A stretch of 43,147 bases of DNA, taken from Massilia mucilaginosa (GTDB taxonomy: Bacteria; Pseudomonadota; Gammaproteobacteria; Burkholderiales; Burkholderiaceae_D). Shown here piece by piece: positions 26,353 through 43,147 of this stretch; within the stretch, counting starts at the first letter, position 1, and every line of letters begins with the position of its first letter. The notes beneath the pieces were generated by a model. That model saw nothing but the letters and a program-made list of their open reading frames with translations, did no database searches and was not told the origin of the DNA. The stretch covers positions 1 to 43,147 of the forward strand of contig NZ_WHJH01000059.1 of assembly GCF_011682145.1 (NCBI RefSeq), read 5' to 3'. Both the position numbers and the translations under genes were made by a program.

Positions 26353-27390
26353 TCATTGGCCATCGCCGCCTCGTTCCGTATTTTCTTGCTCTGCCAAATG
26401 ATTGCGCAACGCCGCAATAATCTCATTCTGCGATGCCAGAGTCGCTTGCGCCGTGGCGAGCGATACTTCCAACCCATGCGCACGCGTAAGCGAAGCTTGC
26501 ACATCTTTTGCGGCTGCCTTCTGTTGCGTTCTGAGCGCCGAAACCTGCGCTTCCAGGGCCGCCAGCTGAACCGCCATGACCTTGGACTTCTGTGCGCCCT
26601 CCTGCAGGACCTCAATCTGCTGCGCCCGTTGGCGTCCCAGCAGTTCCTGATCGTACAGCGACTTCTGCGCATGGGCAATATCAGCCACCAGACGCGCCCC
26701 ATCCTGGTTCAAACGGGTTATGTCCTCCTGTTTTACGACAAGGCCCTGCTGTAGCTGGCGCATTTCGGTGTGTAGTTGCTGAATCTGCTGCTCGTGCCGG
26801 CGCTGGTCCTGGTCACGCTGCTCCTTAACCGACTGGCGATAGTGCTCGAGCGCTTCACGCGCGTGAGTATGTTTTTCTTCGAGTGACTGCCTGTGCGCAT
26901 CATTCTCAAGTAGGCGCAGCTTCAAGCCGGCCACCTGCTCCTCGGCAGTGTGACGGGCAATCGCCTCCGACTGCAACGCGGCGCGTGTTTGGCAGTGCTC
27001 AGCCAGTTCCAATTGCGCGGCGGCTTCGATAAACTCGCGTTTTGCGGTGGCTGCTTCCCTCTCCGTTTGTAAGGTGGCCAGCGCCTCGGCATTCACCCGG
27101 CTTGACTCCAAGGCGCGCACCTCAACTGCGTCGATCCGCGCATTTGCCTCTTCGTGGAGTCGCGCTGCCAGGCGCGAAACGAGATCCTGCAACGCTTCGC
27201 TGACCGCCCCCTTCTTCCCGGCGCCGCCGTCTTCCTCCTCCAGTTCTTTCAGGTACTTATGGATAGTTGTCTTAGACCCAGTGTTGCCTAATGCGACCCG
27301 CACGGCATCCACGGACGGGTGCCGTCCTTGCGCTGTGAGCGCGTCGCGCGCTTTCTTCACTTCCGATAGATACAGACCGGTGCGAGCCAT
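26353..27390 (-). CDS. tnpT: TnpT-like accessory protein of cointegrate resolution (KfrA-type)
   Basis: A 345-residue protein. Residues 1-55 form a KfrA-type DNA-binding domain (GLYLSEVKKARDALTAQG, then GNTGSKTTIHKYLKELEEE). The remainder, about 65-335, is a continuous Gln/Glu/Ala-rich coiled coil, as in plasmid KfrA. In Tn4651, TnpT is such a protein and assists the tyrosine recombinase TnpS at the rst site between the two genes. The divergent tnpS here makes that role much more likely than plasmid partition. A GGAGG four bases before the ATG fixes the start. It may also repress its own promoter, as KfrA does. Confidence 0.78.
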   Translation of the reverse strand: MARTGLYLSEVKKARDALTAQGRHPSVDAVRVALGNTGSKTTIHKYLKELEEEDGGAGKKGAVSEALQDLVSRLAARLHEEANARIDAVEVRALESSRVNAEALATLQTEREAATAKREFIEAAAQLELAEHCQTRAALQSEAIARHTAEEQVAGLKLRLLENDAHRQSLEEKHTHAREALEHYRQSVKEQRDQDQRRHEQQIQQLHTEMRQLQQGLVVKQEDITRLNQDGARLVADIAHAQKSLYDQELLGRQRAQQIEVLQEGAQKSKVMAVQLAALEAQVSALRTQQKAAAKDVQASLTRAHGLEVSLATAQATLASQNEIIAALRNHLAEQENTERGGDGQ

Positions 27391-27412
27391 CAGGCCTCCA
27401 TGAAATAAGATA

Positions 27413-27445
27413 CCATATTACATACCACGTAATTATGTACTAAGT
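27413..27445. promoter_or_regulatory. candidate rst core recombination site between tnpT and tnpS
   Basis: An imperfect inverted repeat with 12-bp arms and a 9-bp spacer: left arm CCATATTACATA (27413-27424), spacer CCACGTAAT, right arm TATGTACTAAGT (27434-27445). The arms agree at 9 of 12 positions and perfectly over the inner TACATA/TATGTA. The size fits a tyrosine-recombinase core site. A second inverted repeat, GATAA-N7-TTATC, at 27487-27503 could bind TnpT. Overlap with the tnpT promoter is likely. Confidence 0.5.
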
Positions 27446-27577
27446 TTCACTCTAAAAGTCGGCATTAATATAGTTTTGTGATATTTGATAATGAGCACTT
27501 ATCCCATGTGATGGTCGAAAAAGCGTATTATTTGCATGATCCGACCTGTACGGGCCGCTCATCCTCAGCAAATTGCT

Positions 27578-28522
27578 ATGAGTAAACTAGATGCTTACCT
27601 GCATGCCGCGACCCGCGACAACACCCGTCGCAGCTATCAAGCCGCGGCCCGTCACTTCGAAGTCGAATGGGGCGGTTTCTTGCCTGCGACGGCGGACGCG
27701 ATTGCACGCTACCTCGTAGACTATGCTGAATCGTTGGCGATAAATACGCTACGCCAGCGTCTTGCAGCCTTGGCGCAGTGGCATCTCGACCAAGGCTTCC
27801 CTGATCCGACCAAGGCACCCGTTGTGCGCAAGGTGCTCCGCGGCATACAGGCACTGCACCCTGGTCGAGAAAAGCAAGCGCGTCCACTACAGCTCGATCA
27901 GCTCGAACAACTTGCGCAATGGCTGGATGCGGGAATTACAGAAGCGGTGGTGGCCGGCAACAGGCCTGCGCACCTGCGCCACACCCGCGACAAGGCTATG
28001 CTCTTGCTCGGCTTCTGGCGCGGCTTTCGCGGCGACGAACTTACGCGGCTGCAGGTCGAGTATATCGACGCGGTGCCGGGCGAAGGAATGACGTGCTTCC
28101 TACCGCATACCAAGGGAGATCGGCGATACAAGGGCACGAATTTTAAGGCGCCAGCGTTGGCGAAACTGTGCCCGGTCAGCGCGTATATCGAATGGGTTTC
28201 GCTGGCGGGTCTTACCGAAGGCGCAGTGTTCCGCGGCATAGACCGCTGGGGCCACGTGCGCAGTGGCGGCTTGCATATCAACAGCCTAGTGCCGCTGCTT
28301 CGCTCGCTTTTCTCGGACGCCGGCATTGCGGTCGCCGAGCAGTACAGCGGCCACTCGCTGCGGCGAGGCTTTGCCCAGTGGGCGACTTCGAATGGCTGGG
28401 ACATCAAAATGCTGATGCAGTACGTGGGCTGGAAGAACGTTCAGTCCGCACTGCGCTATGTCGAGGGCGCAGATCCCTTTGCACGGCATCGGATCGGCGT
28501 AGATTCCCGTGTTGTGAATTAA
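27578..28522 (+). CDS. tnpS: TnpS-like tyrosine recombinase (cointegrate resolvase)
   Basis: A 314-residue tyrosine recombinase. The N-terminal core-binding domain starts AYLHAATRDNTRRSYQAAAR. The catalytic domain carries Arg151 (GFRGDELTRL), His259 and Arg262 (HSLRRGFAQWA) and the nucleophile Tyr294 (ALRYVEGADP). The segments WGGFLPATADAIARYLV and GFPDPTKAPVVRKVL resemble TnpS of Tn4651-type transposons rather than phage integrases. It should resolve cointegrates made by TnpA at the site shared with tnpT. An in-frame ATG at 27536 is an alternative start (328 residues). Confidence 0.8.
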   Translation: MSKLDAYLHAATRDNTRRSYQAAARHFEVEWGGFLPATADAIARYLVDYAESLAINTLRQRLAALAQWHLDQGFPDPTKAPVVRKVLRGIQALHPGREKQARPLQLDQLEQLAQWLDAGITEAVVAGNRPAHLRHTRDKAMLLLGFWRGFRGDELTRLQVEYIDAVPGEGMTCFLPHTKGDRRYKGTNFKAPALAKLCPVSAYIEWVSLAGLTEGAVFRGIDRWGHVRSGGLHINSLVPLLRSLFSDAGIAVAEQYSGHSLRRGFAQWATSNGWDIKMLMQYVGWKNVQSALRYVEGADPFARHRIGVDSRVVN

Positions 28523-28584
28523 TTGCCATTTCCGCCCATGTTGAAATTGGTGCGTGGAAGTCGGTCCGCGTCCATCCTCTAACG

Positions 28585-28605
28585 GATCTTCGCCCGGCGA
28601 AGATC
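28585..28605. terminator. hairpin downstream of tnpS
   Basis: A perfect 9-bp stem with a 3-base loop, GATCTTCGC-CCG-GCGAAGATC, lies 62 bp after the tnpS stop and is followed by AAGCTTTCCTT. The T-run is poor, so intrinsic termination is possible but not certain. The remaining sequence from 28523 to 28791 holds no recognisable gene. Confidence 0.4.
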
Positions 28606-28791
28606 AAGCTTTCCTTAGAGAACTCGATGCGCCAACCGTGCTGGATGAGTTTTTACGCCAATCGGCGCAGATCATCCTCGTTGCGGGCACCACGCCCAAT
28701 TTATGCTGTGCAGCGCCACCGTGTCGCCGTCGCACACAGATGACAGTAAGGGATCGAGCCATGGCGGTTGAGACGCAGGGGTATCCCGGGA

Positions 28792-29664
28792 CTACGTGTG
28801 ATTTGCAGGCACAATTGGAGGCTCGAATGCGCCGAAATCGCCGTGTTGGTAAGCCGCGATGGCGGCAGCAAGCGCCTCGGGCGAGGCAAGTGCCATCGGC
28901 CCTCGCCAGTACACAGGCTGCTGCAGTGGTAGACCAGAAAAGACGACGGCTTTGATTTTACCTTGCGTTGCTGCGAGCGAGATTGAATGTGGTGTTGCCT
29001 GTGCCGGAAAGACCGGCAGCATAAATTGGTCGAGTTCGTAGTGCTGGCCATTGACCGCCAGCTTGCCGTAGATCGGCATGACGAAAGCACTCTGACCTGC
29101 CGGGATAGGCACCGACAGTTCTGCACCTTCATCAAGGCATATATCGAGCAGGGATACCTTGGTCGGCGGTATCAGTGGCGACCCTACCTCTCCGAAACTG
29201 CCTAGCGGTACGCGAATCTTAATGCCTGGCAATTGCACGACCGGCACATCTTCCGGGGCCAGACTCAATGCACGTGGCGCATCGCTCTGCCTTTCCTGGG
29301 CGAGATTGACGAAGATTTGCAGCATGTGGACGGTCTTGCCCGTCTCGGAGGGAAACTCTTCGTGCACGACACCTCTGCCGGCGGCAGTCCAGTGCAGGCC
29401 GCCCGGCGCGATCAGGTGATGGTTGCCCAGCGAATCACGGTTATGGATGCCGGTTTCCGAGTCGAGAAACAGATACGAGACGGCCGAGAACCCGGCATGC
29501 GGATGCGGCGGAAAAGTGGGCGCGCTGATCCAGGCATGATCGACACCGAGGAAGGGGTCGATCGGTTCGGCCGCCTCGCCACCACGCAGCGCGTAGGCAC
29601 GGAAGTGGCTGCCGGAATTCATCGGTTGCAAGCGAACGATGGTGGGCATGTTGAGATTCTCCAT
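28792..29664 (-). CDS. pirin family protein
   Basis: A 290-residue double-cupin pirin. The N-terminal cupin has the metal-binding histidines in FPPHPHAGFSAVSY and GRGVVHEEFP. The partner motif PGGLHWTAAGRG lies between them. Bacterial pirins bind Fe or Ni; some oxidise quercetin, others act as redox-responsive regulators, and the activity here is open. The ATG overlaps the TAA of the upstream reductase gene (TAATG), so the two are translationally coupled. An internal Met at 29649 begins the conserved part. Confidence 0.85.
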   Translation of the reverse strand: MENLNMPTIVRLQPMNSGSHFRAYALRGGEAAEPIDPFLGVDHAWISAPTFPPHPHAGFSAVSYLFLDSETGIHNRDSLGNHHLIAPGGLHWTAAGRGVVHEEFPSETGKTVHMLQIFVNLAQERQSDAPRALSLAPEDVPVVQLPGIKIRVPLGSFGEVGSPLIPPTKVSLLDICLDEGAELSVPIPAGQSAFVMPIYGKLAVNGQHYELDQFMLPVFPAQATPHSISLAATQGKIKAVVFSGLPLQQPVYWRGPMALASPEALAAAIAAYQHGDFGAFEPPIVPANHT

Positions 29665-30734
29665 TACTGCGCCTGATTTGCGCCCAGGGCCGGGTAATCG
29701 GTATAGCCATTGGCACCCGGGGAATAGAACGTATTTTTGTCCGGCGTATTGAGCGCCGCGCCTTGGCGGAGCCGCTCGGGTAAGTCCGGATTGGCAAGGA
29801 AGGCTGAGCCAAATACCGTTGCATCGGCCTTACCTTCGGCAATCAGTGTCTCGGCTTGGGTTTGGTCAAGGCCGCCGCCTATCAGGTAGGCACCGTCGAA
29901 ACGTGGCCGCAGTAGCGCGTGATAATCAGTGCTTGTGCCGAACAGGGCAACGTGCAGGTAGGCGAGCTTGAATTCGCGCAGTTGCTCGACCAGCGTGGTA
30001 TAGGTTTCCTGCGGCGCGGCGTCGACGATATCGTTGAAACCCATCTCCGGCGAAATTTTGATGCCGACGCGATCGCTGCCGGCTTCGGCAACCATCGCGG
30101 CCAGCACTTCCAGAACGAAGCGCGTGCGCTTGGCAACAGAACCGCCGTATTCGTCCGTGCGGTTATTGCTACCCGAGGACAAAAACTGCTCTGGCAAGTA
30201 ACCCGATGCGGCGTGCAGCTCGACACCATCGAATCCGGCGGCCATGGCGCGACGCGTCGCCAGGCCGTAATCGTAGACAATGCGGGCGATCCCGGCGACA
30301 TCGAGGGCTTGCGGTATCATGAACTCTTGCATCCCGGCGCCGGTCCATGCCTGACCAGCTGGCTTGACGGCTGACGGTGCAAGGGGTTGCGCTCCTTCCG
30401 GGAGCAGGGAAGGATGGGAGATGCGTCCGCAGTGCATCAATTGCATAAAAATGCGACCGCCACGCGCATGTACAGCCTCGGTAACTTTCTTCCAAGCGGC
30501 GACCTGGGCATCGTTCTCGATTCCCGGGGTCCGCACATAGCCTTTGCCCATCGCGTTGGGATAGACGCCTTCGGTGATGATCAAGCCGGCGCTGGCACGC
30601 TGCGCATAGTAGGCAACGACCAAATCGCTGGGCACGCCAGCATCATCGGAACGCGAACGGGTCATCGGCGCCATGACCAGACGGTTGGGCAGTGCCAGTC
30701 GGCCAATATGGACAGGGGTGAATAGCTGAGTCAT
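29664..30734 (-). CDS. Old Yellow Enzyme family alkene reductase (NemA-like)
   Basis: A 356-residue FMN-dependent NADH:flavin oxidoreductase with a TIM barrel. Family marks: LFTPVHIGRLALPNR at the start, MAPMTRSRS, QLMHCGRISHPS, and FDGVELHAASGYLPEQFLSS followed by NNRTDEYGGS. The C-terminal phosphate-binding part is GKADATVFGSAFLANPDLP. Relatives reduce activated C=C bonds, N-ethylmaleimide, quinones and nitro-esters. GGAG eight bases upstream supports the ATG at 30734. It heads a two-gene unit with pirin, divergent from a LysR regulator 102 bp away. Confidence 0.9.
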   Translation of the reverse strand: MTQLFTPVHIGRLALPNRLVMAPMTRSRSDDAGVPSDLVVAYYAQRASAGLIITEGVYPNAMGKGYVRTPGIENDAQVAAWKKVTEAVHARGGRIFMQLMHCGRISHPSLLPEGAQPLAPSAVKPAGQAWTGAGMQEFMIPQALDVAGIARIVYDYGLATRRAMAAGFDGVELHAASGYLPEQFLSSGSNNRTDEYGGSVAKRTRFVLEVLAAMVAEAGSDRVGIKISPEMGFNDIVDAAPQETYTTLVEQLREFKLAYLHVALFGTSTDYHALLRPRFDGAYLIGGGLDQTQAETLIAEGKADATVFGSAFLANPDLPERLRQGAALNTPDKNTFYSPGANGYTDYPALGANQAQ

Positions 30735-30788
30735 GTGGTGCTCCTTGGTGGTGACGAGCAATCATTGTGCGCCGCATCATTTTTTTGA

Positions 30789-30826
30789 TAAATAGCGGAA
30801 AATACATTTCATTGATCCATTTGTGG
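30789..30826. promoter_or_regulatory. LysR operator candidate, copy 1
   Basis: This 38-bp interval begins TAAATAGCGG and ends CCATTTGTGG. It agrees with 39597-39634 at 27 of 38 ungapped positions, with both end blocks conserved and exactly 28 bp between their starts. It lies in the divergent region between the reductase and LysR genes. On the minus strand GCTATTTA may be the -10 of the reductase operon. Confidence 0.6.
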
Positions 30827-30836
30827 CACAGTCACC

Positions 30837-31718
30837 ATGAAAATACTGAATGACATGGCGCTTTTTGTTGAGGTCGTCAAAGCGATGAGTTTTCGCGGTG
30901 CAGCTGACGCGATCAATGTGCCAAGCTCAACCTTGTCCCGGCGCGTCAGCGCGCTGGAAAAGTCAATCGGGCTGCGGCTGCTGCATCGCACGACGCGCAA
31001 GATCGAGTTGACCGAAGCCGGACAGCTCTATTTCGAGCGCTGCAAGCGCATCGTCGATGAAGCCAGTCTGGCGCATGAGCAACTGGGCGAAATGCTGGCC
31101 CAGCCGAGCGGGGTATTGCGCGCTTCAATGCCGGAAGGTTTCGCCAACATCTTCCTGGCCCCGCTGGTCGCCGACTTCGCCCGCAGTTATCCCGGCATCC
31201 GTTTTGAACTCGACCTGTCCCCTCGGCCTGTCGATCTGGTCAGCGAGCCGGTCGATGTGGCGATTCGCATGGGGGCGCCGCCGAGTTCAAACCTGATCGC
31301 CCGCCAACTCGCCACGCTGCCGCGCTATCTCTACGCTTCGCCCGACTACTTGGCCAATGCCGGGGAGCCGAGCGAGCCGGCTGACCTGGCCCGGCATGAA
31401 TGTCTCAGATTGCGAACCGTGGAGTCCGACAAGTGGGCGTTGCTGCAAGGAAGTGAAAATGTCGAGATCATGGTTGGTGGCCGCTTTCTGCTTAACAGTG
31501 TCGGCATGATCCAGCGTCTTGCCACGCTGCATATGGGCATTGCGGTACTGGCCAAGGATATTGTCATGGATGACGTGGCCAGCGGAAAACTGCGTCGCGT
31601 GCTGCCTGACTGGCAAGCCACGCCGATACCGGTCTACGCCATTACCGAGACGCGCTTGCTGCCAGCGAAGACGCAGCGCTTCATTGATTTCTTGCGGGAG
31701 CATCTGGCGAGGATTTAA
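30837..31718 (+). CDS. LysR-family regulator of the reductase/pirin operon
   Basis: A 293-residue LysR regulator. The winged helix-turn-helix (~5-63) reads MALFVEVVKAMSFRGAADAI and SSTLSRRVSALEKSIGLRLL. The effector domain starts with VLRASMPEGFAN and has the usual periplasmic-binding fold (DVAIRMGAPPSSNLIARQLA). This is the CrgA/DsdC-like subgroup common in proteobacteria. It is divergent from the reductase/pirin unit and should control it and itself. It is a paralog of the regulator at 39647-40540. Confidence 0.9.
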   Translation: MKILNDMALFVEVVKAMSFRGAADAINVPSSTLSRRVSALEKSIGLRLLHRTTRKIELTEAGQLYFERCKRIVDEASLAHEQLGEMLAQPSGVLRASMPEGFANIFLAPLVADFARSYPGIRFELDLSPRPVDLVSEPVDVAIRMGAPPSSNLIARQLATLPRYLYASPDYLANAGEPSEPADLARHECLRLRTVESDKWALLQGSENVEIMVGGRFLLNSVGMIQRLATLHMGIAVLAKDIVMDDVASGKLRRVLPDWQATPIPVYAITETRLLPAKTQRFIDFLREHLARI

Positions 31719-31918
31719 GCGCGCTCGCTTACGGGGCGCGGCAAAGTTGGTGCTTCGCACTTGCTATAGGACGCGCCATTTTACGCCCGTTCGAAAAGAA
31801 ATAGCCGTATGTTGTTTTCTATTTGTTGCTGATAAAGTTTTCTTGATGTTTGGGAAATTTCGGGCTAGCCTGACTTGCCCAGTTCAAGGATATTTTCGTT
31901 CATAAACGGAGACGTAAA

Positions 31919-32674
31919 ATGCGCAGAGAACACCTTTTCATACCGCTTTTCTTGTTCGTTCCATTTATGGCACAAGCAGCGGACTCGCCCAAATTACTGC
32001 ATTTGGCCAGCCTCGAATGGCCGCCGTTTGCCAGTGCGGCCTTGCCTAACAACGGTGCGAGCGGTGCGGTGGTCGACGCGGCAGCCAAGTTCATGGGCAG
32101 TACCGTGAAGGTAGAATATTTTCCATGGAAGGACACGGTAGCGAAAGGTTCAAACGATCCCGCCTTCATCGGATATTTCCCGGTGTTTATCACGGAAGAA
32201 CGGGCCAAAAGCTGTTACTTTTCAGCGGTGATCGGGAAGAGTTCGACCGGCATTGGTTTTCTCAAGGACACGCCGATCACATGGAAAACGATACCCGATC
32301 TGGCATCGATCAAGCTAGGTGTTGTAGAAGCTTACGCCAACGGCGACGCCTTGGATGAAGCAATCAAACAGGGCAAGCAACAAGTTGAAGTAACCACCAG
32401 CGACACGAATAATGTGCGCAAGCTGGTGAGCAAAAAATTGCCTGCTATTGTCGTCGATAAAGCCGTCTTGCGCTACATGACACTCAATTCTGCGGCCAAG
32501 GACAGCGTTATGTTCCATGAGAAAATGTTATTGGAACGGAGTCTGAACGTTTGTTTCCAGCGTACCCCGGCAGGCAAAGCCGCCCAGGAATCCTTTGACG
32601 CCGCCCTCAAAAAAGTGAATGTCGCCAAGATCGAGGAAGCCTATTTCAAGTCTCTTGAGGAGAAAAAACAATAA
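31919..32674 (+). CDS. orphan periplasmic solute-binding-like protein 1
   Basis: A 251-residue secreted protein (signal peptide cleaved after AQA) with the type-II binding fold of the amino-acid-binding (SBP_bac_3) family. The conserved LEWPPF sits at the start, YFPWKDTVAKGS in lobe one, and a late IEEAYFKSL. There is no ABC permease or ATPase gene nearby. It may feed a distant transporter or act as a sensor. GGAG eight bases before the ATG fixes the start. The 200-bp leader (31719-31918) is AT-rich and promoter-like but without a clear hexamer pair. Confidence 0.75.
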   Translation: MRREHLFIPLFLFVPFMAQAADSPKLLHLASLEWPPFASAALPNNGASGAVVDAAAKFMGSTVKVEYFPWKDTVAKGSNDPAFIGYFPVFITEERAKSCYFSAVIGKSSTGIGFLKDTPITWKTIPDLASIKLGVVEAYANGDALDEAIKQGKQQVEVTTSDTNNVRKLVSKKLPAIVVDKAVLRYMTLNSAAKDSVMFHEKMLLERSLNVCFQRTPAGKAAQESFDAALKKVNVAKIEEAYFKSLEEKKQ

Positions 32675-32827
32675 TCAATGGGCCGCAAAAAACGCCCGTT
32701 CAGCTCCGGCCTGCAAGATGGGAAATGGAATCAAGATTATCGGATTCCAAAGAGGAAGCGTGGGCATCTTTCCACGCGTTCTTGTCCCAAAATTCGCAAA
32801 CGATAAACAATCCTCGAGGATGTGCAT

Positions 32828-33793
32828 ATGCAACGCCGTTCCCAGCTTGCCCGAGTCTGCTGTACTGCCCCATTGCGTTTGCTCATATTGATGATACCCC
32901 TGAATGCGTATGCCGCCGATGTCGTCATGTACGGCTATCTCGATCTCGGGGTAGTCAAAGAAACGGGCACATCGACGCGACTCGATCGCGGTTTCTTCAA
33001 CTATCTGGGTGTTCGAGGCGAAGAAGATTTGGGCGCCAAATCTTCGGCGACGTTTAATTTGCAAATGCGTTTTAGTCCTGACACCGGCATGCAGGAACGC
33101 AGCACAACTTTGTTCCAGGGGGAATCCACAGTTGGTCTAAAAAACGCCGCACTCGGACATTTGCGCCTGGGCCGTGCCATGACTCCGCTGTGGCAGGAAA
33201 AATGGCGATACGATCCTTGGTATGACTCCGCGAGCATGGGCTCCCTTGAGGTTTATAACGGTGACTTCAATAGCGATGGCTTGCCCACGGTGGACTATCA
33301 CAATTACTCGCGCGTGGGGAACGGCGTGTTCTACACCTCGCCCTCCGTTGGCGGGATCAGGTTTAACGGCATGGCGGAGGCACAGCTCGCCGCTGGAGCG
33401 ACGGCGCGCTCGCGAGGCATGGCGGTGAACTTTGGGGAGGAGACACTCACCGCGATGATCTCCTACGAAAAGAATCACCTCTCCGACAACATCCTGTATG
33501 CGGCTGGCTCCTACCGGATGGATCAATTCACCATGATCGGTGCATACTCACGGACCGATTTTTCAGGGGGGGGCGCCAGTCAGCGCAGCATGTTGTTGGC
33601 CGGCACCTACGCCATCAACCTGAATCTACTACGCTTCGGTTATGGCCGCCTGAACGGCAGTCTTGGCCGGAAAACCAGCGTCGGGTACATCTACGGTTTG
33701 TCTAAACGCACCAACATATACAGTGACGTGTATCGAGAGAAAATTTCGAGCAGTAAAACCGGTTTGGCGATCGGTTTCACTCATTCGCTGTGA
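32828..33793 (+). CDS. Gram-negative porin-like outer-membrane protein
   Basis: A 321-residue beta-barrel protein with a signal peptide (cleavage likely after NAYAA). The opening strand VVMYGYLDLGVV and GVRGEEDLGAKSSATFNLQM are typical of betaproteobacterial trimeric porins. LGRAMTPLW corresponds to the constriction-loop region. It is somewhat short and ends GFTHSL: the usual C-terminal Phe is replaced by Leu, which may weaken assembly. GAGGA seven bases before 32828 favours that ATG over the GTG at 32822. Confidence 0.75.
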   Translation: MQRRSQLARVCCTAPLRLLILMIPLNAYAADVVMYGYLDLGVVKETGTSTRLDRGFFNYLGVRGEEDLGAKSSATFNLQMRFSPDTGMQERSTTLFQGESTVGLKNAALGHLRLGRAMTPLWQEKWRYDPWYDSASMGSLEVYNGDFNSDGLPTVDYHNYSRVGNGVFYTSPSVGGIRFNGMAEAQLAAGATARSRGMAVNFGEETLTAMISYEKNHLSDNILYAAGSYRMDQFTMIGAYSRTDFSGGGASQRSMLLAGTYAINLNLLRFGYGRLNGSLGRKTSVGYIYGLSKRTNIYSDVYREKISSSKTGLAIGFTHSL

Positions 33794-33917
33794 CCATGTC
33801 CAAGCGGTCAATGCTGATAGGGGATTCATCAGCTGGCGCCAGCGAATCGGACGGTACCCGGCTCTCGGTGGCGCAATTGTATGACAAAAATTCAGCGACT
33901 TTTGCCGAGGCGGAGGG

Positions 33918-34706: not shown

Positions 34707-34776
34707 TTTTAGTTGGGGGGGCAAGGAGCGCTTCCGTGCCTGAAAATTCTGTCCGTCAATCAACAAGGAGCCGGAA

Positions 34777-36393: not shown

Positions 36394-36564
36394 GGCCGGC
36401 CGCCAACAATGCGCCCCATCGAAAGGGAGTCAGCCAGCTAACTGGCGCCCAGATGATATTCCGGAATACGCAAGCGCAACGGGCGCTGTCGTGCTGTGTT
36501 CAAACGGCGGAGTTTTCCGCAAAGGGTGCTGTACGCTCCCCTTAACACGTCCCAAGGTCAACAT

Positions 36565-37797
36565 TTATTGCACACGAAACATTTCAGGCTGTTTCAGCCT
36601 CTCAAACTCGATGACCGCGATCACGAACGTAGGCGCTGCCGTCACAGCAGCAATGGCCCAGGCCAACGGCAAGCCGAGCGCCACCGCAGCCACGACGGCT
36701 ACCAAAATGAGTAGTGCAATACCCCACGCCCAGCCCACTTGCGCCAAGCCACGGGCGATGTGGCGGTGTAGCCACCACAGTGTTAGCAAGTAGACACCTA
36801 CGGCCGCCGCCACAAGGCCAATAGCCAATGTAGGTGCGACGGCGTGATATGCGGAACTTCCTTTGAACCCATCTGCAACAACCTCCAAGAACGCGCCCAA
36901 GGCGGCCAATGAGCCAAATACTACAAAGTGTCCGTAGCCCCAATTGAACGCACGTTCGCGGTGGTGATGCAGAGTCTCTGCGTTGGGCACCAGGAAGTAG
37001 ACCCACCAAAGGGACAGAATTAAGCCGACTGAGCCCAAGCCAACCATTGCCAAGTCGAGCGACCAGCCTTGTACTTCGATCAAGCCAGCCACTGCGTTGA
37101 AGGCACCAAGCACACATTCGCCCAGCACGATGATCGTGAACAGCCCATATCGTTCTGCGATGTGGTGCACATGCCAGGGAGTGTGGCCCGCCTTGGCGGC
37201 CCAGATCGGAACAGACAGCTCCAGTAACATGAGCATAAGGAAGCTCGGCAGCGACCAAGCACCGGATAGTGCTAGGCGAGCGAGCCACAGAAGCTGCAAG
37301 CCCCCGATGCCAATGGCCGAGCGTATCGCGGTCTGTCGCCGTTCTGGATGCTCGCGTGCGGCGCGCAGCCACATCGCCAGCAGACCAATGCGCATCACCG
37401 CATAGCCGATCGTTACGGCGATGAAGTCGCCCTCAGCGACCTTGGGCATGCCGGAGGCCAAAATCAGTACGCCGACCATCTGCACCATCGTCCATAACCG
37501 GTAGATGGAGTCGTCGGTATCGTAGGCGCTGGCAAACCAGGTGAAGTTCATCCAAGCCCACCAGATGGCTGCAAAGCCTGTGCAATATGCAAGCATCCCC
37601 ACCGCTAGATGGTGTTCGCCAACGGCATGGTGCAGTTGCGAGGAGACCGCCGCGACGGCAACGACAAACGTTAGGTCGAACAACAGTTCCAGCGGGGTGG
37701 AAACGCGGTTGGTTTCGTGAATGTCACGACCTACCATGCGGCGCAGAACACGCGTGTGGGCCACAGGTGATTGGACAGGTGAAGATGGTGAAGTCAT
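36565..37797 (-). CDS. LtrA-like (low temperature requirement A) membrane protein
   Basis: A 410-residue multi-pass protein with about ten membrane helices. Family marks: VSTPLELLFDLTFVVAVAAV at the start, AIWWAWMNFTWFASAYDTDD, and ERYGLFTIIVLGECVLG in the middle. LtrA was named from a Listeria low-temperature mutant; its molecular role is unknown. The start at 37797 (MTSPSSPVQ) is preferred over 37842. It is the third gene in a minus-strand series behind the oxidoreductase and hydrolase, 142 bp downstream of the latter. The sequence 36394-36564 has no gene. Confidence 0.85.
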   Translation of the reverse strand: MTSPSSPVQSPVAHTRVLRRMVGRDIHETNRVSTPLELLFDLTFVVAVAAVSSQLHHAVGEHHLAVGMLAYCTGFAAIWWAWMNFTWFASAYDTDDSIYRLWTMVQMVGVLILASGMPKVAEGDFIAVTIGYAVMRIGLLAMWLRAAREHPERRQTAIRSAIGIGGLQLLWLARLALSGAWSLPSFLMLMLLELSVPIWAAKAGHTPWHVHHIAERYGLFTIIVLGECVLGAFNAVAGLIEVQGWSLDLAMVGLGSVGLILSLWWVYFLVPNAETLHHHRERAFNWGYGHFVVFGSLAALGAFLEVVADGFKGSSAYHAVAPTLAIGLVAAAVGVYLLTLWWLHRHIARGLAQVGWAWGIALLILVAVVAAVALGLPLAWAIAAVTAAPTFVIAVIEFERLKQPEMFRVQ

Positions 37798-37939
37798 CCG
37801 GGCTCTATGGCAGAAAACGGGTCGGAAGTAGTCGATTCCCACGGCAGGAGCCTGAGTATTACAACCGACCCGGCGCTAAGGCAGAACTGCGGCCGTAACA
37901 AGGCTACTGCAGTGCGCGCTGGCGTACTTGCGTCGCGGT

Positions 37940-38509
37940 TCAGGTCAGCAACGGGAACGCGACAGCACCCGCAGGACTCGCCCAGTTCTTAACCAATTCA
38001 GCCACTACCGCGCCTGTGCTTGTAAGGCGTACGCCAGCCCGCTCCATCCGACGCCAGGCCATTTCTTCGGCAATCGGATTCGACGAACCACAGGCGTCGC
38101 ACACTACCTGCACGTTAAAGCCTTCCTGCAGCGCGCTGATGGCGGGCATGACCATGCAAATGTCCGTCGTGACGCCCGCCATCACAAAGTTGCGTTTGCC
38201 GGTGGCCCGGCATGCGTTGGCAAAGGCCTCATCGTCCCAGGCGTTGACCACACCTTGGCGTTGGATGCGCGCGGCAAACGCCTCGGGCAGTATGTCTTGC
38301 AGCTCGGGCATCAAGGGACCCTGGACGTTGACATTGGTCTCTTGGCTGGAGGTCAACACCACCGGCATGCCTGTGCCTTTGGCGAATTTGGCCAGAACGA
38401 TCACATTGCGCTGCAGCAGCGCCAGCGGCGTTGTGGAAGCCCAGGTGTTGGTGCCGACCTGGTGGTCGATCAGGATCACGGCAGTGTCTTGGAGATTGAA
38501 GCTGTGCAT
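37940..38509 (-). CDS. YcaC-like cysteine hydrolase (isochorismatase superfamily)
   Basis: A 189-residue isochorismatase-fold hydrolase. Asp15 (LIDHQ) and the nucleophile Cys118 (GVTTDICM) are evident. QGVVNAWDDEAFANAC and CDACGSSNPIAEEMAWRRM match the YcaC group, whose physiological substrate is unknown. The usual catalytic Lys position seems to be occupied by an Arg/Gln segment (ARIQRQG), as also seen in YcaC relatives. AAAAGG upstream supports the start. It follows the oxidoreductase gene by 83 bp on the same strand. Confidence 0.85.
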   Translation of the reverse strand: MHSFNLQDTAVILIDHQVGTNTWASTTPLALLQRNVIVLAKFAKGTGMPVVLTSSQETNVNVQGPLMPELQDILPEAFAARIQRQGVVNAWDDEAFANACRATGKRNFVMAGVTTDICMVMPAISALQEGFNVQVVCDACGSSNPIAEEMAWRRMERAGVRLTSTGAVVAELVKNWASPAGAVAFPLLT

Positions 38510-38592
38510 GGTGTTGCCTTTTAAAGGTTGGGGTTTAACGAAGAGAAGTAAAAACAACTGACGGCGATTAACTTGGTCAACGCGCCCGACGC

Positions 38593-39534
38593 TTAAGCCA
38601 CGGGCGCGTTGACATGCAAAACCATTTTCCCGCGCGCTTTGCCTGACTCGCCCAGGCGGTGGGCCAGCGCTGCGTCGGCCAAGGCAAACTCCTGCCCCAC
38701 CAAAATACGCAAATGCCCTGAGTCCACCAGTGCTGCCAGCTGCGCCAACACCACGCCGCGTGGAGGCGTGAAGACAAAGGCCGCGCGCACGCCAGCAGCT
38801 GCGGCTCGCTCGGGCGATGGGGGCGTAGCCGTGGCAACTAGAAGACCGCCTTTTCGCAGCGTGGCCCATGAAGCCTCTTGCGTAGCGCCACCCAAGGTGT
38901 CCAGTACCACATCCAAGTTGCTCGCCAGTTGCTCAAAGCGCTGTGTGCGGTAGTCAATGACTTCGTCCGCGCCCAAGCTTTTGACCAAAGCCAAGTCGGT
39001 TGTGCCAGCCGTGGCGATGACGTAAGCGCCTTGCAGTTTGGCCAGTTGCACGGCCACACTGCCCAAGGCACCCGCACCGCCGTGCACCAGCACGCGCATG
39101 CCGCGCTCCAGCTTTGCAGTTTCCATCAGGGCCGTCCAAGCGGCCTGAGCGGGTGTCGGCATGGCAGCCGCAGCCGCAAAAGAGACCGTGCGGGGCTTGA
39201 GCGCCACTTGGGAGGCATTGACCGCCACGTAGTCGGCATAGCTGCCGCCACGGGCAAATTCGGCATAGAAAAAGACTTCGTCACCCGTCGCAAAGCCGCT
39301 GACCGCACTTCCTACGGCAGTGACCACACCTGCGGCGTCTGAGCCCAAAGCGAATGGGAACGTCTTAGGTATGCCGTGCGCCATGGCGCCGCTGCGCAGC
39401 TTCCAGTCAATCGGGTTGACACCGGCGGCGACCACGCGCACTAGTACATCGCCAGCGTCGCAGACCGGGACCGGTGCGTCTTCGAGTTGCATTTGACTGG
39501 CATCGCCGTAGGCGTGAATTCGAATGGCTTTCAT
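38593..39534 (-). CDS. MDR-family NADP-dependent quinone/enone oxidoreductase
   Basis: A 313-residue medium-chain dehydrogenase/reductase. It starts MKAIRIHAYGDASQMQLED, has VNPIDWKLRSG and LGSDAAGVV, and a Rossmann motif VHGGAGALGSVAVQLAK. No structural or catalytic zinc cysteines are present, so it belongs to the quinone oxidoreductase-like branch rather than the zinc alcohol dehydrogenases. Likely substrates are quinones or alpha,beta-unsaturated carbonyls. It is divergent from a LysR gene 112 bp away and heads the minus-strand unit. Confidence 0.87.
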   Translation of the reverse strand: MKAIRIHAYGDASQMQLEDAPVPVCDAGDVLVRVVAAGVNPIDWKLRSGAMAHGIPKTFPFALGSDAAGVVTAVGSAVSGFATGDEVFFYAEFARGGSYADYVAVNASQVALKPRTVSFAAAAAMPTPAQAAWTALMETAKLERGMRVLVHGGAGALGSVAVQLAKLQGAYVIATAGTTDLALVKSLGADEVIDYRTQRFEQLASNLDVVLDTLGGATQEASWATLRKGGLLVATATPPSPERAAAAGVRAAFVFTPPRGVVLAQLAALVDSGHLRILVGQEFALADAALAHRLGESGKARGKMVLHVNAPVA

Positions 39535-39596
39535 ATTATTGTCTTTCTGGAGTGGAGGTTGGTAATGGTCAAATAATAGACTTTTCCAAAAAAAAA

Positions 39597-39634
39597 TAAA
39601 TAGCAGTAAATGAATAATACTTTTCCATTTATGG
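39597..39634. promoter_or_regulatory. LysR operator candidate, copy 2
   Basis: This 38-bp interval begins TAAATAGCAG and ends CCATTTATGG. It is the counterpart of 30789-30826 with the same internal spacing. The last block is itself an inverted repeat (CCAT-TT-ATGG) ending 12 bp before the LysR start codon. On the minus strand TGCTATTTA looks like an extended -10 for the oxidoreductase operon. Confidence 0.6.
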
Positions 39635-39646
39635 GATACTGGGCAG

Positions 39647-40540
39647 ATGGAAAATCTGTCTGCCTTGCACGACATGGCCTTGTTCGTTGAAGTGGCTCGT
39701 ACTATGAGCTTTAGTCGCGCTAGCACCAAGCTCGGTGTGCCGGGTGCGACGTTGTCGCGGCGCATTGCTGCAATGGAACGCCATTTCGGCGTGCGCTTGC
39801 TAGACCGCAACACGCGCAAGGTAGCCCTCAGCGAAGCTGGGCAACGCTACTTCGAGCGCTGCGCCCACCTGGTGGACGAGGCACGGGCGGCGCAAGAGGC
39901 ACTGTCCGACACCGTCAATCGCCCTATCGGCCATGTGCGCGTGTCTATGCCGGTCGATTTGGGGCTGACCTACATCGGCCCTTTATTGCCCGACTTTGCC
40001 CGCCAATACCCCGGCATCAGTTTGGATTTGGACCTATCGCCCCGTCATAGCAATCTCGTTACTGAGCATGTGGATTTGGCGATTCGTCTGGGTGAGGTCG
40101 TGGGCGATCAATTGGTGGTGCGACGCCTAGGGAGCCTCGAACACTTTCTTTTTGCTGCCCCAAGTTACTTGGCTCTGCACGGGCAGCCGCAGCAGCCCGC
40201 TGAACTGGTTGAACACACCTGCATCACAACCGGCAGTGCGCAGCAAGCTAGCAATTGGCACTTGCAGCGCGATGGGTGCGGTATGGATGTCCAGGTGCGC
40301 GGTCATTTCGGCATTAACAACCCTGGTTTGATCCGCCTGCTGGCAGAACGGGGTTTGGGTATTGCGGCTTTGTCACACAAACTGGCGCGCGAGGCCGTCA
40401 GCGCCGAGCGCCTAGTCCGCGTGCTACCCGATTGGTCTTTCAAGCCCGTCCCGGTAAGCGGCGTTATGGCCACGCGGATGCAGACTGCCAGTGTGCGGGT
40501 TTTGGTGGAGTTTTTGGCAGCGCGACTGTCGCTGGAGTGA
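39647..40540 (+). CDS. LysR-family regulator of the oxidoreductase operon
   Basis: A 297-residue LysR protein. The helix-turn-helix (~8-67) has MALFVEVARTMSFSRASTKL and ATLSRRIAAMERHFGVRLLD. The effector domain begins GHVRVSMPVDLGLTYIGPLL. It resembles the regulator at 30837 in both halves (shared LSRR, TRK, RYFERC and DLDLSPR segments), so the two likely arose by duplication or were recruited from one family. It is divergent from the oxidoreductase/hydrolase unit. The region 40541-40662 downstream holds no gene and no clear transposon repeat. Confidence 0.9.
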   Translation: MENLSALHDMALFVEVARTMSFSRASTKLGVPGATLSRRIAAMERHFGVRLLDRNTRKVALSEAGQRYFERCAHLVDEARAAQEALSDTVNRPIGHVRVSMPVDLGLTYIGPLLPDFARQYPGISLDLDLSPRHSNLVTEHVDLAIRLGEVVGDQLVVRRLGSLEHFLFAAPSYLALHGQPQQPAELVEHTCITTGSAQQASNWHLQRDGCGMDVQVRGHFGINNPGLIRLLAERGLGIAALSHKLAREAVSAERLVRVLPDWSFKPVPVSGVMATRMQTASVRVLVEFLAARLSLE

Positions 40541-40662
40541 CCAAGGAGCACTGCGCGAACAGCGATGGACCATGTTGCCCGGGCGGTTGCCATCAGCGCT
40601 GGCGCCGCGCAACAAATCGACAAGCGTAACGAGGTGGCTTCGCCCCCAAGGGAGACCGGGAC

Positions 40663-43147
40663 TTGAGTAGCATCCATGAGACTGCATATCCACGCTTTAA
40701 GCCCGACCTGACACAACGTGAGCTCGAAGACGTGTACGCGCCTAGTAACGATGACAGCAAATTCATTCGCCGTAACGCCAAGACGGCGGCTGCCAAGCTT
40801 TACCTCGCGCTGCTGCTCAAAACCGTCATGAGGCTGGGATACTTTCCGATGCTTCACGAGATTCCGGCACCTATCGTATCCTTCATTGGAAAAAAAATAG
40901 GCGTGGGCTCTATTCCGGCGCGCGATCTTCTTGAGGAAGAGAAGCGACATCACTCACGCGTAAGATGCATGGAATCGATTCGGGCTTACGTCAAGATCCG
41001 GCCTATTACCGGCGAGACCCACACCGCCATCTTAAGCGCCGCGACGGAGGCTGCCCAGACCAAACAAGAGCTGGCCGATATTATCAACGTCATCATCGAA
41101 GAACTGGTACGCCAGCGGTTCGAGCTACCGGCGTTCACCACGCTCAATCGAAAGGCCTTTGCGGTACGCAGCCAAGTCAACGACCGCTATTTCCGAACGC
41201 TTGCCAGCCCTCTGCCAGAGGCCGTCATTAATCGATTTGACGAGATGCTGACACCCGCCCCGGTCCGGGGGATGAGCGGATGGCAGCAGATGAAACAGGA
41301 TCCCAAAAAGCCGACCAACACGGAAGTGCGGATATACCTTCAGCATCTGCAATGGCTCAAGAGCTGGTCGACCGAACTGCCTGCGGTTGCCCACATCCCC
41401 GTGGTAAAGCGCAGCCAGTATGTGCACGAGGCACGCGCCCTGGACGTAGCAGACATGAAGGCCCTGAAAAAAGATAAGCGCTATGCGCTGATGGTATTGC
41501 TATTCCATGCACAGTTGAGCAAGTCGCTCGATGACGCGATCGAGATGTTCATCCGAAAGCTGCGCAAAATTCACAACGGCGCCGAAGAGCAGTTGCGGCA
41601 GTATTATCTGGAGCACCAGAAACGGGCGGAGAAACTGATCATCCAGCTGCGTGACGTCTTGGAGGCTTTTGTGGAAGGTGAAACGGACGCGGACAGGGGC
41701 GCGCGTATCGCCGCGGCCTTCCAGGATGAGCCAGGCAACCTGCTGATCGAATGCGACGAACACATTGCTTACGCCGGCAATAACTACTTGCCGTTCATGT
41801 TGGCGCCTTATCAGGCGCAACGGCCGCTGCTTCTCAACTGCCTGAGCCTGCTTAATCTGGAATCGACGTCGGCCGACCGATCCCTCATTGACGCGATCCA
41901 TTTCGTGCTGGCGCACCGACAAAGCCACCGCGATTGTCTGTCGATCGCCGGGACCAACCTGAGCTTGAAATGGATTCCGGAAAAATGGCGCAGACTTGTC
42001 ACTGGACAGCGCTCCGGAACTGTCACGGAGGTAAGCCGAAAATATTTTGAGCTATGCGTGCTCACCGAAGCGATGCAGGAGCTGCAATCGGGTGATCTGT
42101 TTGTTGCCAATAGCGATCACTTCAGCGACTACCGCACGCAGTTGGTCGATTGGGATCAGTACCAGGCCGAAGTCGGGGAGTACGGCGCCATGCTCGGGCT
42201 GCAGACGGACCCCAAGGCATTCTCCGCAGCACTCAAGAAGTCGCTTGGGGAGACCGCCGCCCGTGTGGATGCAGGCCTTCCGGATAACGAGCATGTGGAC
42301 TTGGTAGGTACCGAGCTGATCATGCGAAAACACGCCAAGGACGCCCAACCTGATGCACTTGCAAAGATCGATAAGATCCTCACAGCGCGGCTACCTGAAA
42401 AGAACATCCTAGACATCCTAGTGGAATCCGAAGGATGGCTGGATCTGCATAAACATTTCGGCCCACTATCTGGATTCGACTCGAAGATCGACGATCCGCG
42501 TAAACGCTTCATCACCACGCTGTTCTGCTATGGATGCAATCTTGGCGCCACGCAGACCGCCCGTTCGGTCAAAGACTTGAGCCGCAAGCAGGTGGCCTGG
42601 CTCAATTTGCACCACATCACGGAAGAGCGCTTGGAAAAAGCCATCGTCCAGGTCATCAATGCCTACAACAAATTCCTCTTGCCTAAATACTGGGGTTCAG
42701 GAAAGAGCGCTTCGGCGGACGGCACCAAGTGGAACATGTACGAGCAGAATCTCCTTTCCGAGTACCACATTCGCTACGGGGGCTACGGCGGCATCGGGTA
42801 TTACCACGTGTCTGACATGTACATCGCGCTATTTAGCCATTTCATTCCGTGCGGCGTGTACGAGGCGATATATATTTTGGATGGTCTGATCAAGAACGAG
42901 TCAGACATTCAGCCTGATACGCTGCATGGCGACACGCACGCGCAAAGCGCACCTGTGTTCGGCTTGGCCTATTTACTCGGGATCAAACTGATGCCGCGCA
43001 TACGCAACCTGAAAAGCCTTGTTTTTTACAAACCAGACCGCGGTACGCGCTACGAGCACATCAACGGTTTGTTCAGCGAATCAATCAACTGGGAACTGAT
43101 CGAAATCCATCTGCCGGACATGCTGCGCATCGCGCTATCCATCAGGG
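40663..43147 (+). CDS. tnpA: Tn3-family transposase, N-terminal ~828 residues (partial)
   Basis: One frame is open from 40663 to the window edge, following an in-frame TAA at 40627. A TTG start at 40663 has AAGGGAG eight bases before it and gives SSIHETAYPRFKPDLTQREL, a typical start for Tn3 transposases of the Tn4651-like branch. The C-terminal catalytic domain has the first two acidic residues of the DDE triad: Asp686 (SADGTKW) and Asp757 (HGDTHAQS), close to Asp689 and Asp765 of Tn3. The glutamate should lie past the edge. It makes cointegrates that tnpS/tnpT would resolve. No frameshift is seen in the visible part. Confidence 0.88.
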   Translation, partial: MSSIHETAYPRFKPDLTQRELEDVYAPSNDDSKFIRRNAKTAAAKLYLALLLKTVMRLGYFPMLHEIPAPIVSFIGKKIGVGSIPARDLLEEEKRHHSRVRCMESIRAYVKIRPITGETHTAILSAATEAAQTKQELADIINVIIEELVRQRFELPAFTTLNRKAFAVRSQVNDRYFRTLASPLPEAVINRFDEMLTPAPVRGMSGWQQMKQDPKKPTNTEVRIYLQHLQWLKSWSTELPAVAHIPVVKRSQYVHEARALDVADMKALKKDKRYALMVLLFHAQLSKSLDDAIEMFIRKLRKIHNGAEEQLRQYYLEHQKRAEKLIIQLRDVLEAFVEGETDADRGARIAAAFQDEPGNLLIECDEHIAYAGNNYLPFMLAPYQAQRPLLLNCLSLLNLESTSADRSLIDAIHFVLAHRQSHRDCLSIAGTNLSLKWIPEKWRRLVTGQRSGTVTEVSRKYFELCVLTEAMQELQSGDLFVANSDHFSDYRTQLVDWDQYQAEVGEYGAMLGLQTDPKAFSAALKKSLGETAARVDAGLPDNEHVDLVGTELIMRKHAKDAQPDALAKIDKILTARLPEKNILDILVESEGWLDLHKHFGPLSGFDSKIDDPRKRFITTLFCYGCNLGATQTARSVKDLSRKQVAWLNLHHITEERLEKAIVQVINAYNKFLLPKYWGSGKSASADGTKWNMYEQNLLSEYHIRYGGYGGIGYYHVSDMYIALFSHFIPCGVYEAIYILDGLIKNESDIQPDTLHGDTHAQSAPVFGLAYLLGIKLMPRIRNLKSLVFYKPDRGTRYEHINGLFSESINWELIEIHLPDMLRIALSIR

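What the first reader, a model, noticed from the sequence alone, without database searches (positions are those of the whole stretch)
26353..43147. Tn4651-type transposon carrying a redox/chemosensory passenger load
A divergent KfrA-like coiled-coil gene and a TnpS-like tyrosine recombinase lie at one end, and an outward-reading Tn3-family tnpA at the other. Between them are ~12 kb of passengers: pirin, Old Yellow Enzyme, two LysR regulators, two orphan binding proteins, porin, chemoreceptor, LtrA, YcaC-like hydrolase and quinone oxidoreductase. Known Tn4651 relatives carry catabolic or metal-resistance genes; this cargo is not one I recognise.
Basis: partly seen in the sequence, partly recalled or inferred. 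Interest (0 to 1): 0.8.

Follow-up and report, generated by a model that had tools for sequence, protein, structure and literature searches.

The report
Jumping gene carrying redox-enzyme cargo
A bacterium carries a roughly 17.7-kilobase jumping element, with its ends present at two sites in the genome, that hauls redox enzymes probably used against reactive chemicals plus a sensing set, and part of that cargo was picked up from an older, different jumping element.

Summary
The finding is real, and its ends can be fixed. The window is one whole contig that stops inside tnpA. The element starts at 26,033 (not 26,353) with a terminal repeat, GAGGGTTGGCCGGGATTCGTG..., that splits a DUF5985 gene. 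The right end (tnpA C-terminus plus matching repeat) is on contig C357. Both flanks carry the 5-bp duplication TAAAT, and congeners hold the unoccupied site. The same two ends recur at a second locus (TATTC). TnpA is closest to Tn4651 among five known transposases tested (34% identical), with TnpS at 60% and TnpT at 40%, so I place it in the Tn4651 subgroup. Its repeat starts GAGG, as reported for TnXax1, not GGGG. The passengers are not ancestral. The pirin-OYE-LysR module also rides (85% DNA identity) on a serine-resolvase transposon in IncP plasmid pTE_C_4, and at 71-79% protein identity beside IS1071 on a Thauera plasmid. A 165-bp broken resolvase-gene piece beside pirin shows that the module came from such a transposon. 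The two divergent LysR promoters share an operator-like block. Best reading of the cargo: LysR-controlled defence against quinones, nitroaromatics or enones, plus a sensing set of unknown ligand. The transposon is a new member of a known kind; the mobile redox module appears undescribed.

The parts
26028..26032 (.). left copy of the 5-bp target duplication TAAAT (right copy: G000 contig C357:160-164)
26033..26068 (+). left terminal inverted repeat (IRL), GAGGGTTGGCCGGGATTCGTGTAAAAATACCC...; 34 of 36 bp match the right repeat on C357
25787..26071 (-). DUF5985 gene split near its 5' end; its remaining frame runs into IRL, which supplies an in-frame ATG
26353..27390 (-). tnpT: KfrA_N-domain resolution helper, 40% identical to Tn4651 TnpT
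27391..27535 (.). tnpT-tnpS spacer with the presumed rst resolution site; core ATTACATACCACGTAATTATGTACTAA at 27417-27443 is recognisable by eye in pWW0 (Tn4651) and relatives
27536..28522 (+). tnpS: tyrosine recombinase, 60% identical to Tn4651 TnpS
28594..28758 (-). relic of a serine resolvase gene (tnpR, about residues 40-101), frameshifted and with a stop; 76% identical to pTE_C_4 tnpR DNA
28792..29664 (-). pirin (module A)
29664..30761 (-). Old Yellow Enzyme, NemA-like alkene reductase (module A)
30762..30836 (.). divergent OYE/LysR1 promoter with an operator-like block (30788-30826)
30837..31718 (+). LysR1 (module A), 92% identical to the pTE_C_4 regulator
31919..32674 (+). orphan periplasmic binding protein 1 (module C)
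32822..33793 (+). general porin (module C)
33918..34706 (+). orphan periplasmic binding protein 2 (module C)
34777..36393 (+). methyl-accepting chemoreceptor (module C)
36565..37800 (-). LtrA-family membrane protein (module B)
37940..38518 (-). YcaC-like isochorismatase-fold hydrolase (module B)
38593..39540 (-). quinone-oxidoreductase-like zinc-type dehydrogenase (QOR, module B)
39541..39646 (.). divergent QOR/LysR2 promoter; block 39596-39634 resembles that of LysR1
39647..40540 (+). LysR2 (module B)
40663..43147 (+). tnpA, Tn3-family DDE transposase, cut by the contig end after residue 828 of about 989; C-terminus and IRR on C357:1-159

Best explanation
This is a Tn3-family transposon, best placed in the Tn4651 (TnpS/TnpT) subgroup, about 17.65 kb, with its two ends at two sites in one genome. 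TnpA copies it into a target with 5-bp duplications; TnpS, helped by TnpT, resolves the cointegrate at rst between tnpT and tnpS. SHOWN by sequence: both ends, duplications, unoccupied target sites, a second pair of ends, TnpA/TnpS/TnpT kinship, an rst-like core, recurrence of module A on other mobile DNA, and the tnpR relic. INFERRED: that it still moves; that both copies carry the full cargo; the resolution site; and what the cargo does. Cargo model: LysR1 and LysR2 sense a reactive aromatic or electrophilic compound (quinone, nitroaromatic, enone) or its metabolite through similar operators and switch on OYE-pirin and QOR-YcaC-LtrA, which reduce or cleave it; the porin, binding proteins and chemoreceptor admit, bind and sense a solute, possibly the same one. 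Module A was captured from a serine-resolvase Tn3-family transposon like that in pTE_C_4, leaving a tnpR scar.
For: Ends: IRL at 26033, IRR on C357, TAAAT on both sides. Unoccupied site in 4 of 4 congener loci fetched for it; in 3 the flank alignments overlap by exactly 5 bp, in the fourth they meet within a few bp. Second locus: C375 | TATTC ... C11 | TATTC, with an exact 5-bp junction in congener G016; C11:1-127 is identical to the left terminal 127 bp, and the two right ends differ at 1 of 159 bases. Backbone. Rst core. Module A on pTE_C_4 at 85.4% over 2.9 kb, and the tnpR relic. On Thauera plasmid pTX1 LysR, OYE and pirin are 72%, 79% and 71% identical to module A and lie on both sides of an IS1071 transposase gene. 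Operator block: 28 of 39 bp, score 34 against a shuffle mean of 16.8, sd 2.8, 0 of 500 as high. Functional analogy: YhaJ, a LysR regulator divergent from yhaK, controls quinol/DNT response genes including the pirin yhhW (PMC5031710, passages).
Against: About 384 bp of tnpA (residues 829-956) is unassembled, so integrity of that part is not shown. The interior of copy 2 is not shown; it rests on assembly logic. TnpS/TnpT also occur in some Tn163-subgroup members (PMC7157771, passage), and no Tn163 transposase was compared. No substrate, inducer or expression data. The shared operator block may only reflect common ancestry of two LysR paralogues (43% identical); its central palindrome pattern was found in 4 of the 10 promoters tested, not in pTE_C_4. 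I found no conserved link of the chemosensory genes to the redox genes elsewhere, so they may be unrelated cargo. OYE has H-A-A-S where NemA/OYE1 carry HxxH or HxxN (recalled), so its activity may differ.
Confidence: 0.82

Rival explanations
1. Passengers are native chromosomal genes and only a tnpA (or tnpT/tnpS and tnpA separately) was inserted beside them.
For: Distant homologues exist in the host: OYE-LysR at C111 (68% DNA), an SBP1 homologue at 47%.
Against: Congeners have the target site uninterrupted, with flanks 17 kb apart here lying next to each other there; no high-identity passenger block among the 12 other congeners in the family sample; GC step at the boundary.
Confidence: 0.01
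2. The cargo is a degradative (catabolic) load for growth on a particular aromatic or alkene compound, with uptake and chemotaxis genes, rather than a detoxification load.
For: Porin, binding proteins and chemoreceptor accompany the enzymes; Tn4651 itself lies around xyl catabolic genes with a regulator.
Against: Among the cargo genes scanned there is no CoA ligase, beta-oxidation enzyme or ABC permease, and no ring-cleavage oxygenase apart from the pirin, which might act as a quercetinase.
Confidence: 0.2
3. The cargo is a chance patchwork of three unrelated modules kept by hitchhiking; the sensing set has nothing to do with the redox genes.
For: Modules differ in GC (SBP1 50.7%, SBP2 50.2% against 59-63% for pirin, OYE, QOR) and in nearest relatives; module A has its own earlier transposon history.
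Against: Two redox modules with similar LysR promoters ended up in one element; the cargo reading frames are open.
Confidence: 0.35
4. The second locus (C375/C11) is a short deletion derivative or a mobile insertion cassette that only has the ends, not a second full copy.
For: Only 127 and 159 bp of the ends are on those contigs.
Against: 127 bp equals a usual assembly k-mer overlap (recalled), and 159 equals that plus the position (32) of the single difference, as expected for a collapsed long repeat (inference).
Confidence: 0.25

Closest known systems
Tn4651 (pWW0, toluene catabolic transposon)
   Same: Divergent tnpT/tnpS with a recognisable rst core; TnpS 60%, TnpT 40%, TnpA 34% identical.
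   Different: In pWW0 a GGGGTTATGCCGAGATAAGGC stretch, which I recall as the Tn4651 repeat, lies upstream of tnpA, and tnpC lies downstream; here the IR starts GAGGG, tnpA reads outward to IRR, no tnpC was seen, and the cargo is redox/sensing.
TnXax1 (Xanthomonas, Tn4651 subgroup)
   Same: tnpA, tnpS and tnpT, and an IR that begins GAGG as reported (PMC4619425 figure legend, PMC7157771 Fig. 1 legend; passages).
   Different: Reported cargo is plant-pathogenicity genes; none recognised here. TnpA identity not measured (no TnXax1 record was fetched).
Moraxella osloensis p2 mercury transposon (NZ_CP047228)
   Same: TnpA 74%, TnpS 68%, TnpT 60% identical; same type of right IR.
   Different: mer operon lies between tnpT and tnpS; no redox cargo in the annotated stretch. 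Its left end was not located.
15.1-kb tnpR-type transposon of IncP plasmid pTE_C_4 (L003:3647-18715)
   Same: Carries the same pirin-OYE-LysR module at 85.4% DNA identity.
   Different: TnpA only 26% identical, serine resolvase, different IR (44 of 47 bp between its ends), TGGAA duplication, extra isochorismatase and an efflux operon.
Thauera sp. K11 plasmid pTX1 locus
   Same: LysR, OYE, pirin of the same kind (72%, 79%, 71%).
   Different: An IS1071 transposase gene lies between OYE and pirin; an isochorismatase gene follows pirin; no TnpS/TnpT element was recognised in the annotated stretch.
E. coli yhaJ-yhaK (LysR with divergent gene yhaK)
   Same: LysR regulator divergent from a pirin-like gene, responding to quinols and DNT metabolites (PMC5031710, passages).
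   Different: Chromosomal, no OYE in the pair; not shown to be orthologous.

Membership tests
Tn3 family | TnpA of about 1000 aa with the DDE_Tnp_Tn3 domain | tested here: met
   PF01526 305.3 bits, NF033527 520.6 over cut-off 500; C-terminus found on C357, 384 bp between not assembled
Tn3 family | Terminal inverted repeats of about 38 bp or more | tested here: met
   34 of 36 bp match, with weaker similarity further in
Tn3 family | 5-bp target duplication | tested here: met
   TAAAT and TATTC at the two loci, single copy in congeners
Tn4651 subgroup | TnpA groups with Tn4651 rather than with other subgroups | tested here: inconclusive
   Nearest of five compared: Tn4651 507 bits, pTE_C_4 234, Tn4653 216, Tn4430 181, IS1071 58; Tn163, Tn3 and Tn3000 types not compared; the 34-row tree is unrooted with one Tn4651 and two tnpR-type rows and cannot settle it
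Tn4651 subgroup | TnpS+TnpT resolution pair, divergent, rst between them | tested here: met
   rst activity not tested; the pair also occurs in some Tn163-subgroup members (PMC7157771), so it is not exclusive
   Begins GAGGG; the literature gives GAGG for TnXax1 of the same subgroup, so this is not a defining feature
TnXax1-like branch | IR begins GAGG | tested here: met
   comparison value from PMC4619425 legend
TnXax1-like branch | TnpA nearest to TnXax1 TnpA | not tested
   no TnXax1 record was fetched
Tn21/Tn501-type (tnpR) transposon | functional serine resolvase and tnpR-type TnpA | tested here: not met
   only a 165-bp broken tnpR relic is present; TnpA 25-26%
YhaJ-type quinol-response regulon | LysR induced by quinols or DNT metabolites | not testable with these tools
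   LysR1 and LysR2 reach no NCBIfam cut-off among the 25 best families shown for each

The most novel reading that the evidence does not exclude
A LysR-controlled OYE-pirin 'electrophile defence' cassette, often with an isochorismatase-type hydrolase, circulates between unrelated Tn3-family elements (a TnpS/T type here, a tnpR type on pTE_C_4, IS1071 association on pTX1). In this element it has been joined by a second redox operon under a similar operator and by a chemoreceptor set, so that one transposon makes its host both detect and neutralise the same reactive compound.
Probability: 0.2. Interest if true: 0.65.

Novelty: new member of a known kind. Interest (0 to 1): 0.45.

Why it matters
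Tn3-family cargo is known mainly as antibiotic, metal, catabolic or plant-pathogenicity genes (general knowledge; PMC7157771 passages). Here is a bounded transposon, with unoccupied sites at two loci, whose cargo is redox and chemosensory genes, and one module of which can be followed through three mobile contexts. The tnpR scar documents cargo passing from a serine-resolvase transposon to a TnpS/T transposon. It makes a testable claim: OYE-pirin sets under a LysR regulator are selected as mobile tolerance genes in polluted habitats (one of the three sources is petrochemical-plant sludge).

Tried and rejected
Native-passenger reading: rejected by unoccupied sites. Internal terminal repeats: a scan from 25,001 to the window end for the 21-bp IR core (6 or fewer mismatches) found only IRL, so no nested copy of this element was seen. 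Internal tnpR-type IR: best match 23 of 38, taken as chance. Module A in complete E. coli genomes: no match by megablast. DNA relatives of LtrA-YcaC-QOR-LysR2 (E 1e-20 limit) and of SBP1-porin-SBP2 (E 1e-5) on plasmids: none. Donor of the sensing set: not found; the best relatives outside the window in 399 order genomes are 47% for SBP1 (own genome) and 40% for SBP2. Papers: searches showed no title or abstract start reporting this cargo on a transposon (52, 53 and 58 had no hits); the library holds open-licence PMC papers only, and hits were seen as listings except the seven papers seen as passages. A congener, G012, has related ends 36 kb apart whose adjacent 5-mers do not match; left unexplained.
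Full report
WHAT WAS CHECKED. The window is contig C371 of a 7.70-Mb, 416-contig genome and ends where the contig ends. A genome of the same genus, G008, has a contig C10 with the same length (52,214) and the same partial TnpA match as Massilia polaris contig NZ_JABBGG010000018, so the host is probably a Massilia relative (inference). TnpA is cut by the contig end after residue 828 of about 989.

ENDS. Of 20 TnpA loci whose downstream DNA I printed, 15 have, within 4 mismatches, the repeat core GAGGGTCGGCCGGGATTCGTG just after tnpA; L011, L014, L018, L058 and L066 do not. The window has the same repeat at 26033, inside the 5' end of a DUF5985 gene (PF19447). The own genome has three more copies within 3 mismatches: C357:139-159, C375:35831-35851 and C11:107-127. 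Adjacent 5-mers pair them: window left TAAAT with C357 TAAAT, and C375 TATTC with C11 TATTC. C357:1-159 encodes the TnpA C-terminus (33 residues, then stop) in line with relative L007, followed by IRR. IRL agrees with IRR at 34 of 36 bases on C357 and 33 of 36 on C375; the two right ends differ at 1 of 159. Taking TnpA as 989 aa, the element is about 17.65 kb, of which about 0.38 kb is unassembled.

UNOCCUPIED SITES. In congeners G003, G009 and G004 the window's left flank and C357's right flank lie side by side, overlapping by exactly the 5 target bases; in G016 they are also adjacent, with a diverged target (TAGAT). These are the 4 congeners fetched for the site out of 16 other genus members searched. 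For the second locus, 1 of 5 congener loci compared (L207, G016) shows the two flanks meeting with an exact 5-bp overlap. In L204 they are about 0.15 kb apart, L203 lacks about the last 1 kb of the left flank, and L205 and L206 match the right flank only. So the first insertion is proved by several empty sites and the second by one, plus its TATTC pair. Because C11 shares exactly 127 bp and C357/C375 share 159 bp with the element ends, I infer a collapsed repeat, that is, two near-identical copies; a shorter second copy is not excluded.

BACKBONE. TnpS is 60.5% and TnpT 40.2% identical to Tn4651 of pWW0. TnpA compared with five known transposases: Tn4651 33.9% and 507 bits, pTE_C_4 25.8% and 234, Tn4653 24.8% and 216, Tn4430 181 bits (phmmer), IS1071 24.4% over 213 residues and 58 bits. 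Tn163-, Tn3- and Tn3000-type transposases were not compared, and some Tn163-subgroup members also carry TnpS/TnpT (PMC7157771, passage), so the subgroup is likely rather than proved. In a 34-row tree the window pairs with L007 (100/100) within an Oxalobacteraceae-rich clade; the tree is unrooted and its only named reference elements are Tn4651, Tn4653 and pTE_C_4. The tnpT-tnpS spacer has ATTACATACCACGTAATTATGTACTAA (27417-27443), recognisable by eye in pWW0, L025, L079, L012 and L200. The literature defines TnpS as the recombinase, TnpT as the helper and rst as the site between them, and reports that TnXax1's IR begins GAGG while related IRs begin GGGG (PMC7157771 and PMC4619425, passages; one legend in PMC7157771 names TnpT and TnpS the other way round). 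Three relatives whose genes near tnpA I could read carry metal-resistance-type genes: mer in L079, RND efflux in L004, and a P-type ATPase with an efflux outer-membrane protein in L007. L016 and L017 were unclear, and the left ends of these relatives were not located.

CARGO. Three modules: A, pirin-OYE with divergent LysR1; C, binding protein 1, porin, binding protein 2, chemoreceptor; B, LtrA-YcaC-QOR with divergent LysR2. In the family sample 179 of 195 genomes match the cargo DNA somewhere, mostly at the conserved chemoreceptor stretch in the rows listed; the best non-self match was 71% over 2.9 kb (G097, module A; only two candidates per genome were scored). In 399 Burkholderiales genomes, 2 (one of them the own genome) matched the first half at E 1e-100, and 3 (one own) matched the second half at E 1e-80. 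YcaC is 93%, LysR2 84% and QOR 74% identical in G218. The binding proteins have no near relative. In 399 genomes 15 and 46 matched at E 1e-25 (own genome counted), the best being 47% for SBP1 (own genome; 39% elsewhere) and 40% for SBP2. Among the ten plasmid rows listed for each, the best were 36% and 29%.

MODULE A IS MOBILE ON ITS OWN ACCOUNT. Window 28773-31709 matches pTE_C_4 (IncP plasmid, record strain E. coli CV601) at 85.4%. There it sits in a 15.1-kb transposon (L003:3647-18715) whose ends match at 44 of 47 bp, with TGGAA on both sides and a serine resolvase (PF00239). A second collinear stretch, window 28594-28758, matches the middle of that resolvase gene (76%, E 4e-29) and is frameshifted with a stop. 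The simplest reading is that module A arrived with a piece of such a transposon; pTE_C_4 has an isochorismatase gene between tnpR and pirin that the window lacks at that place. On Thauera plasmid pTX1 a LysR-OYE pair and a pirin-isochorismatase pair flank an IS1071 transposase gene; LysR, OYE and pirin there are 72%, 79% and 71% identical to module A. Against a fixed set: Pararhizobium plasmid L255 has LysR-OYE without pirin in the stretch read, and Cupriavidus L256 had no annotation.

REGULATION AND FUNCTION. The two divergent promoter regions in the window share a 39-bp ungapped block, 28 of 39 identical (score 34; 500 swap-type shuffles keeping neighbouring bases: mean 16.8, sd 2.8, maximum 27). 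Similar sequence is seen at the LysR promoters of pTE_C_4, three other genomes and the host's own chromosomal copy (14 invariant columns of 64), which I chose as module relatives. The central palindrome pattern was found in 4 of 10 promoters tested and not in pTE_C_4. This fits a common operator type, but common descent of two related LysR genes would also give similarity. In E. coli the LysR regulator YhaJ, divergent from yhaK, responds to hydroquinone and DNT and controls a pirin with quercetinase activity (PMC5031710, passages); in P. aeruginosa BexR raises a hydrolase-redox protein-FMN reductase-pirin operon (PMC2796861, passages). I therefore favour defence against quinone-, nitroaromatic- or enone-like compounds, at about 0.45 for the function taken alone. 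The link of the chemosensory set to this is speculative. The OYE carries H-A-A-S where I recall HxxH or HxxN in NemA and OYE1; pTE_C_4, L195, L196 and L199 share H-A-A-S and L189 has H-T-A-S, so it is a clade trait.

VERDICT. The transposon is a new member of a known kind. What is new is the cargo and the documented passage of one module between transposon types. I found no report of it in the searches named in Tried and rejected, which cover open-licence papers only.

Noticed in passing
window 25787-26071: The transposon's left repeat supplies an in-frame ATG to the split DUF5985 gene, replacing its first four codons by 13, so a protein may still be made.
   Followed up: partly
G012 (L122, L200, L120): A congener has ends of this element family 36 kb apart with a TnpS 83% and a TnpT 66% identical between them, but the adjacent 5-mers do not match and no TnpA match was found in the stretches read.
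   Followed up: partly
L121 / L065 (Massilia polaris contig 18): An 8-kb relative with matching 5-bp duplications and only part of a tnpA: a decayed or non-autonomous derivative.
   Followed up: no
L048, L042, L055: Further relatives in Burkholderia and Paraburkholderia with IR-like ends and identical 5-mers on both sides (CATTT, TTACT, GACCA); other loci with two IR-like sites did not have matching 5-mers, apart from L065/L121.
   Followed up: no
L007, L020: In two relatives the DNA right after the right-hand repeat encodes chemoreceptor pieces (49% over 126 aa, 60% over 60 aa); possibly chance, as these hosts have many.
   Followed up: partly
window 29664-30761: The OYE belongs to a group with H-A-A-S (or H-T-A-S) in the active-site motif.
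   Followed up: partly
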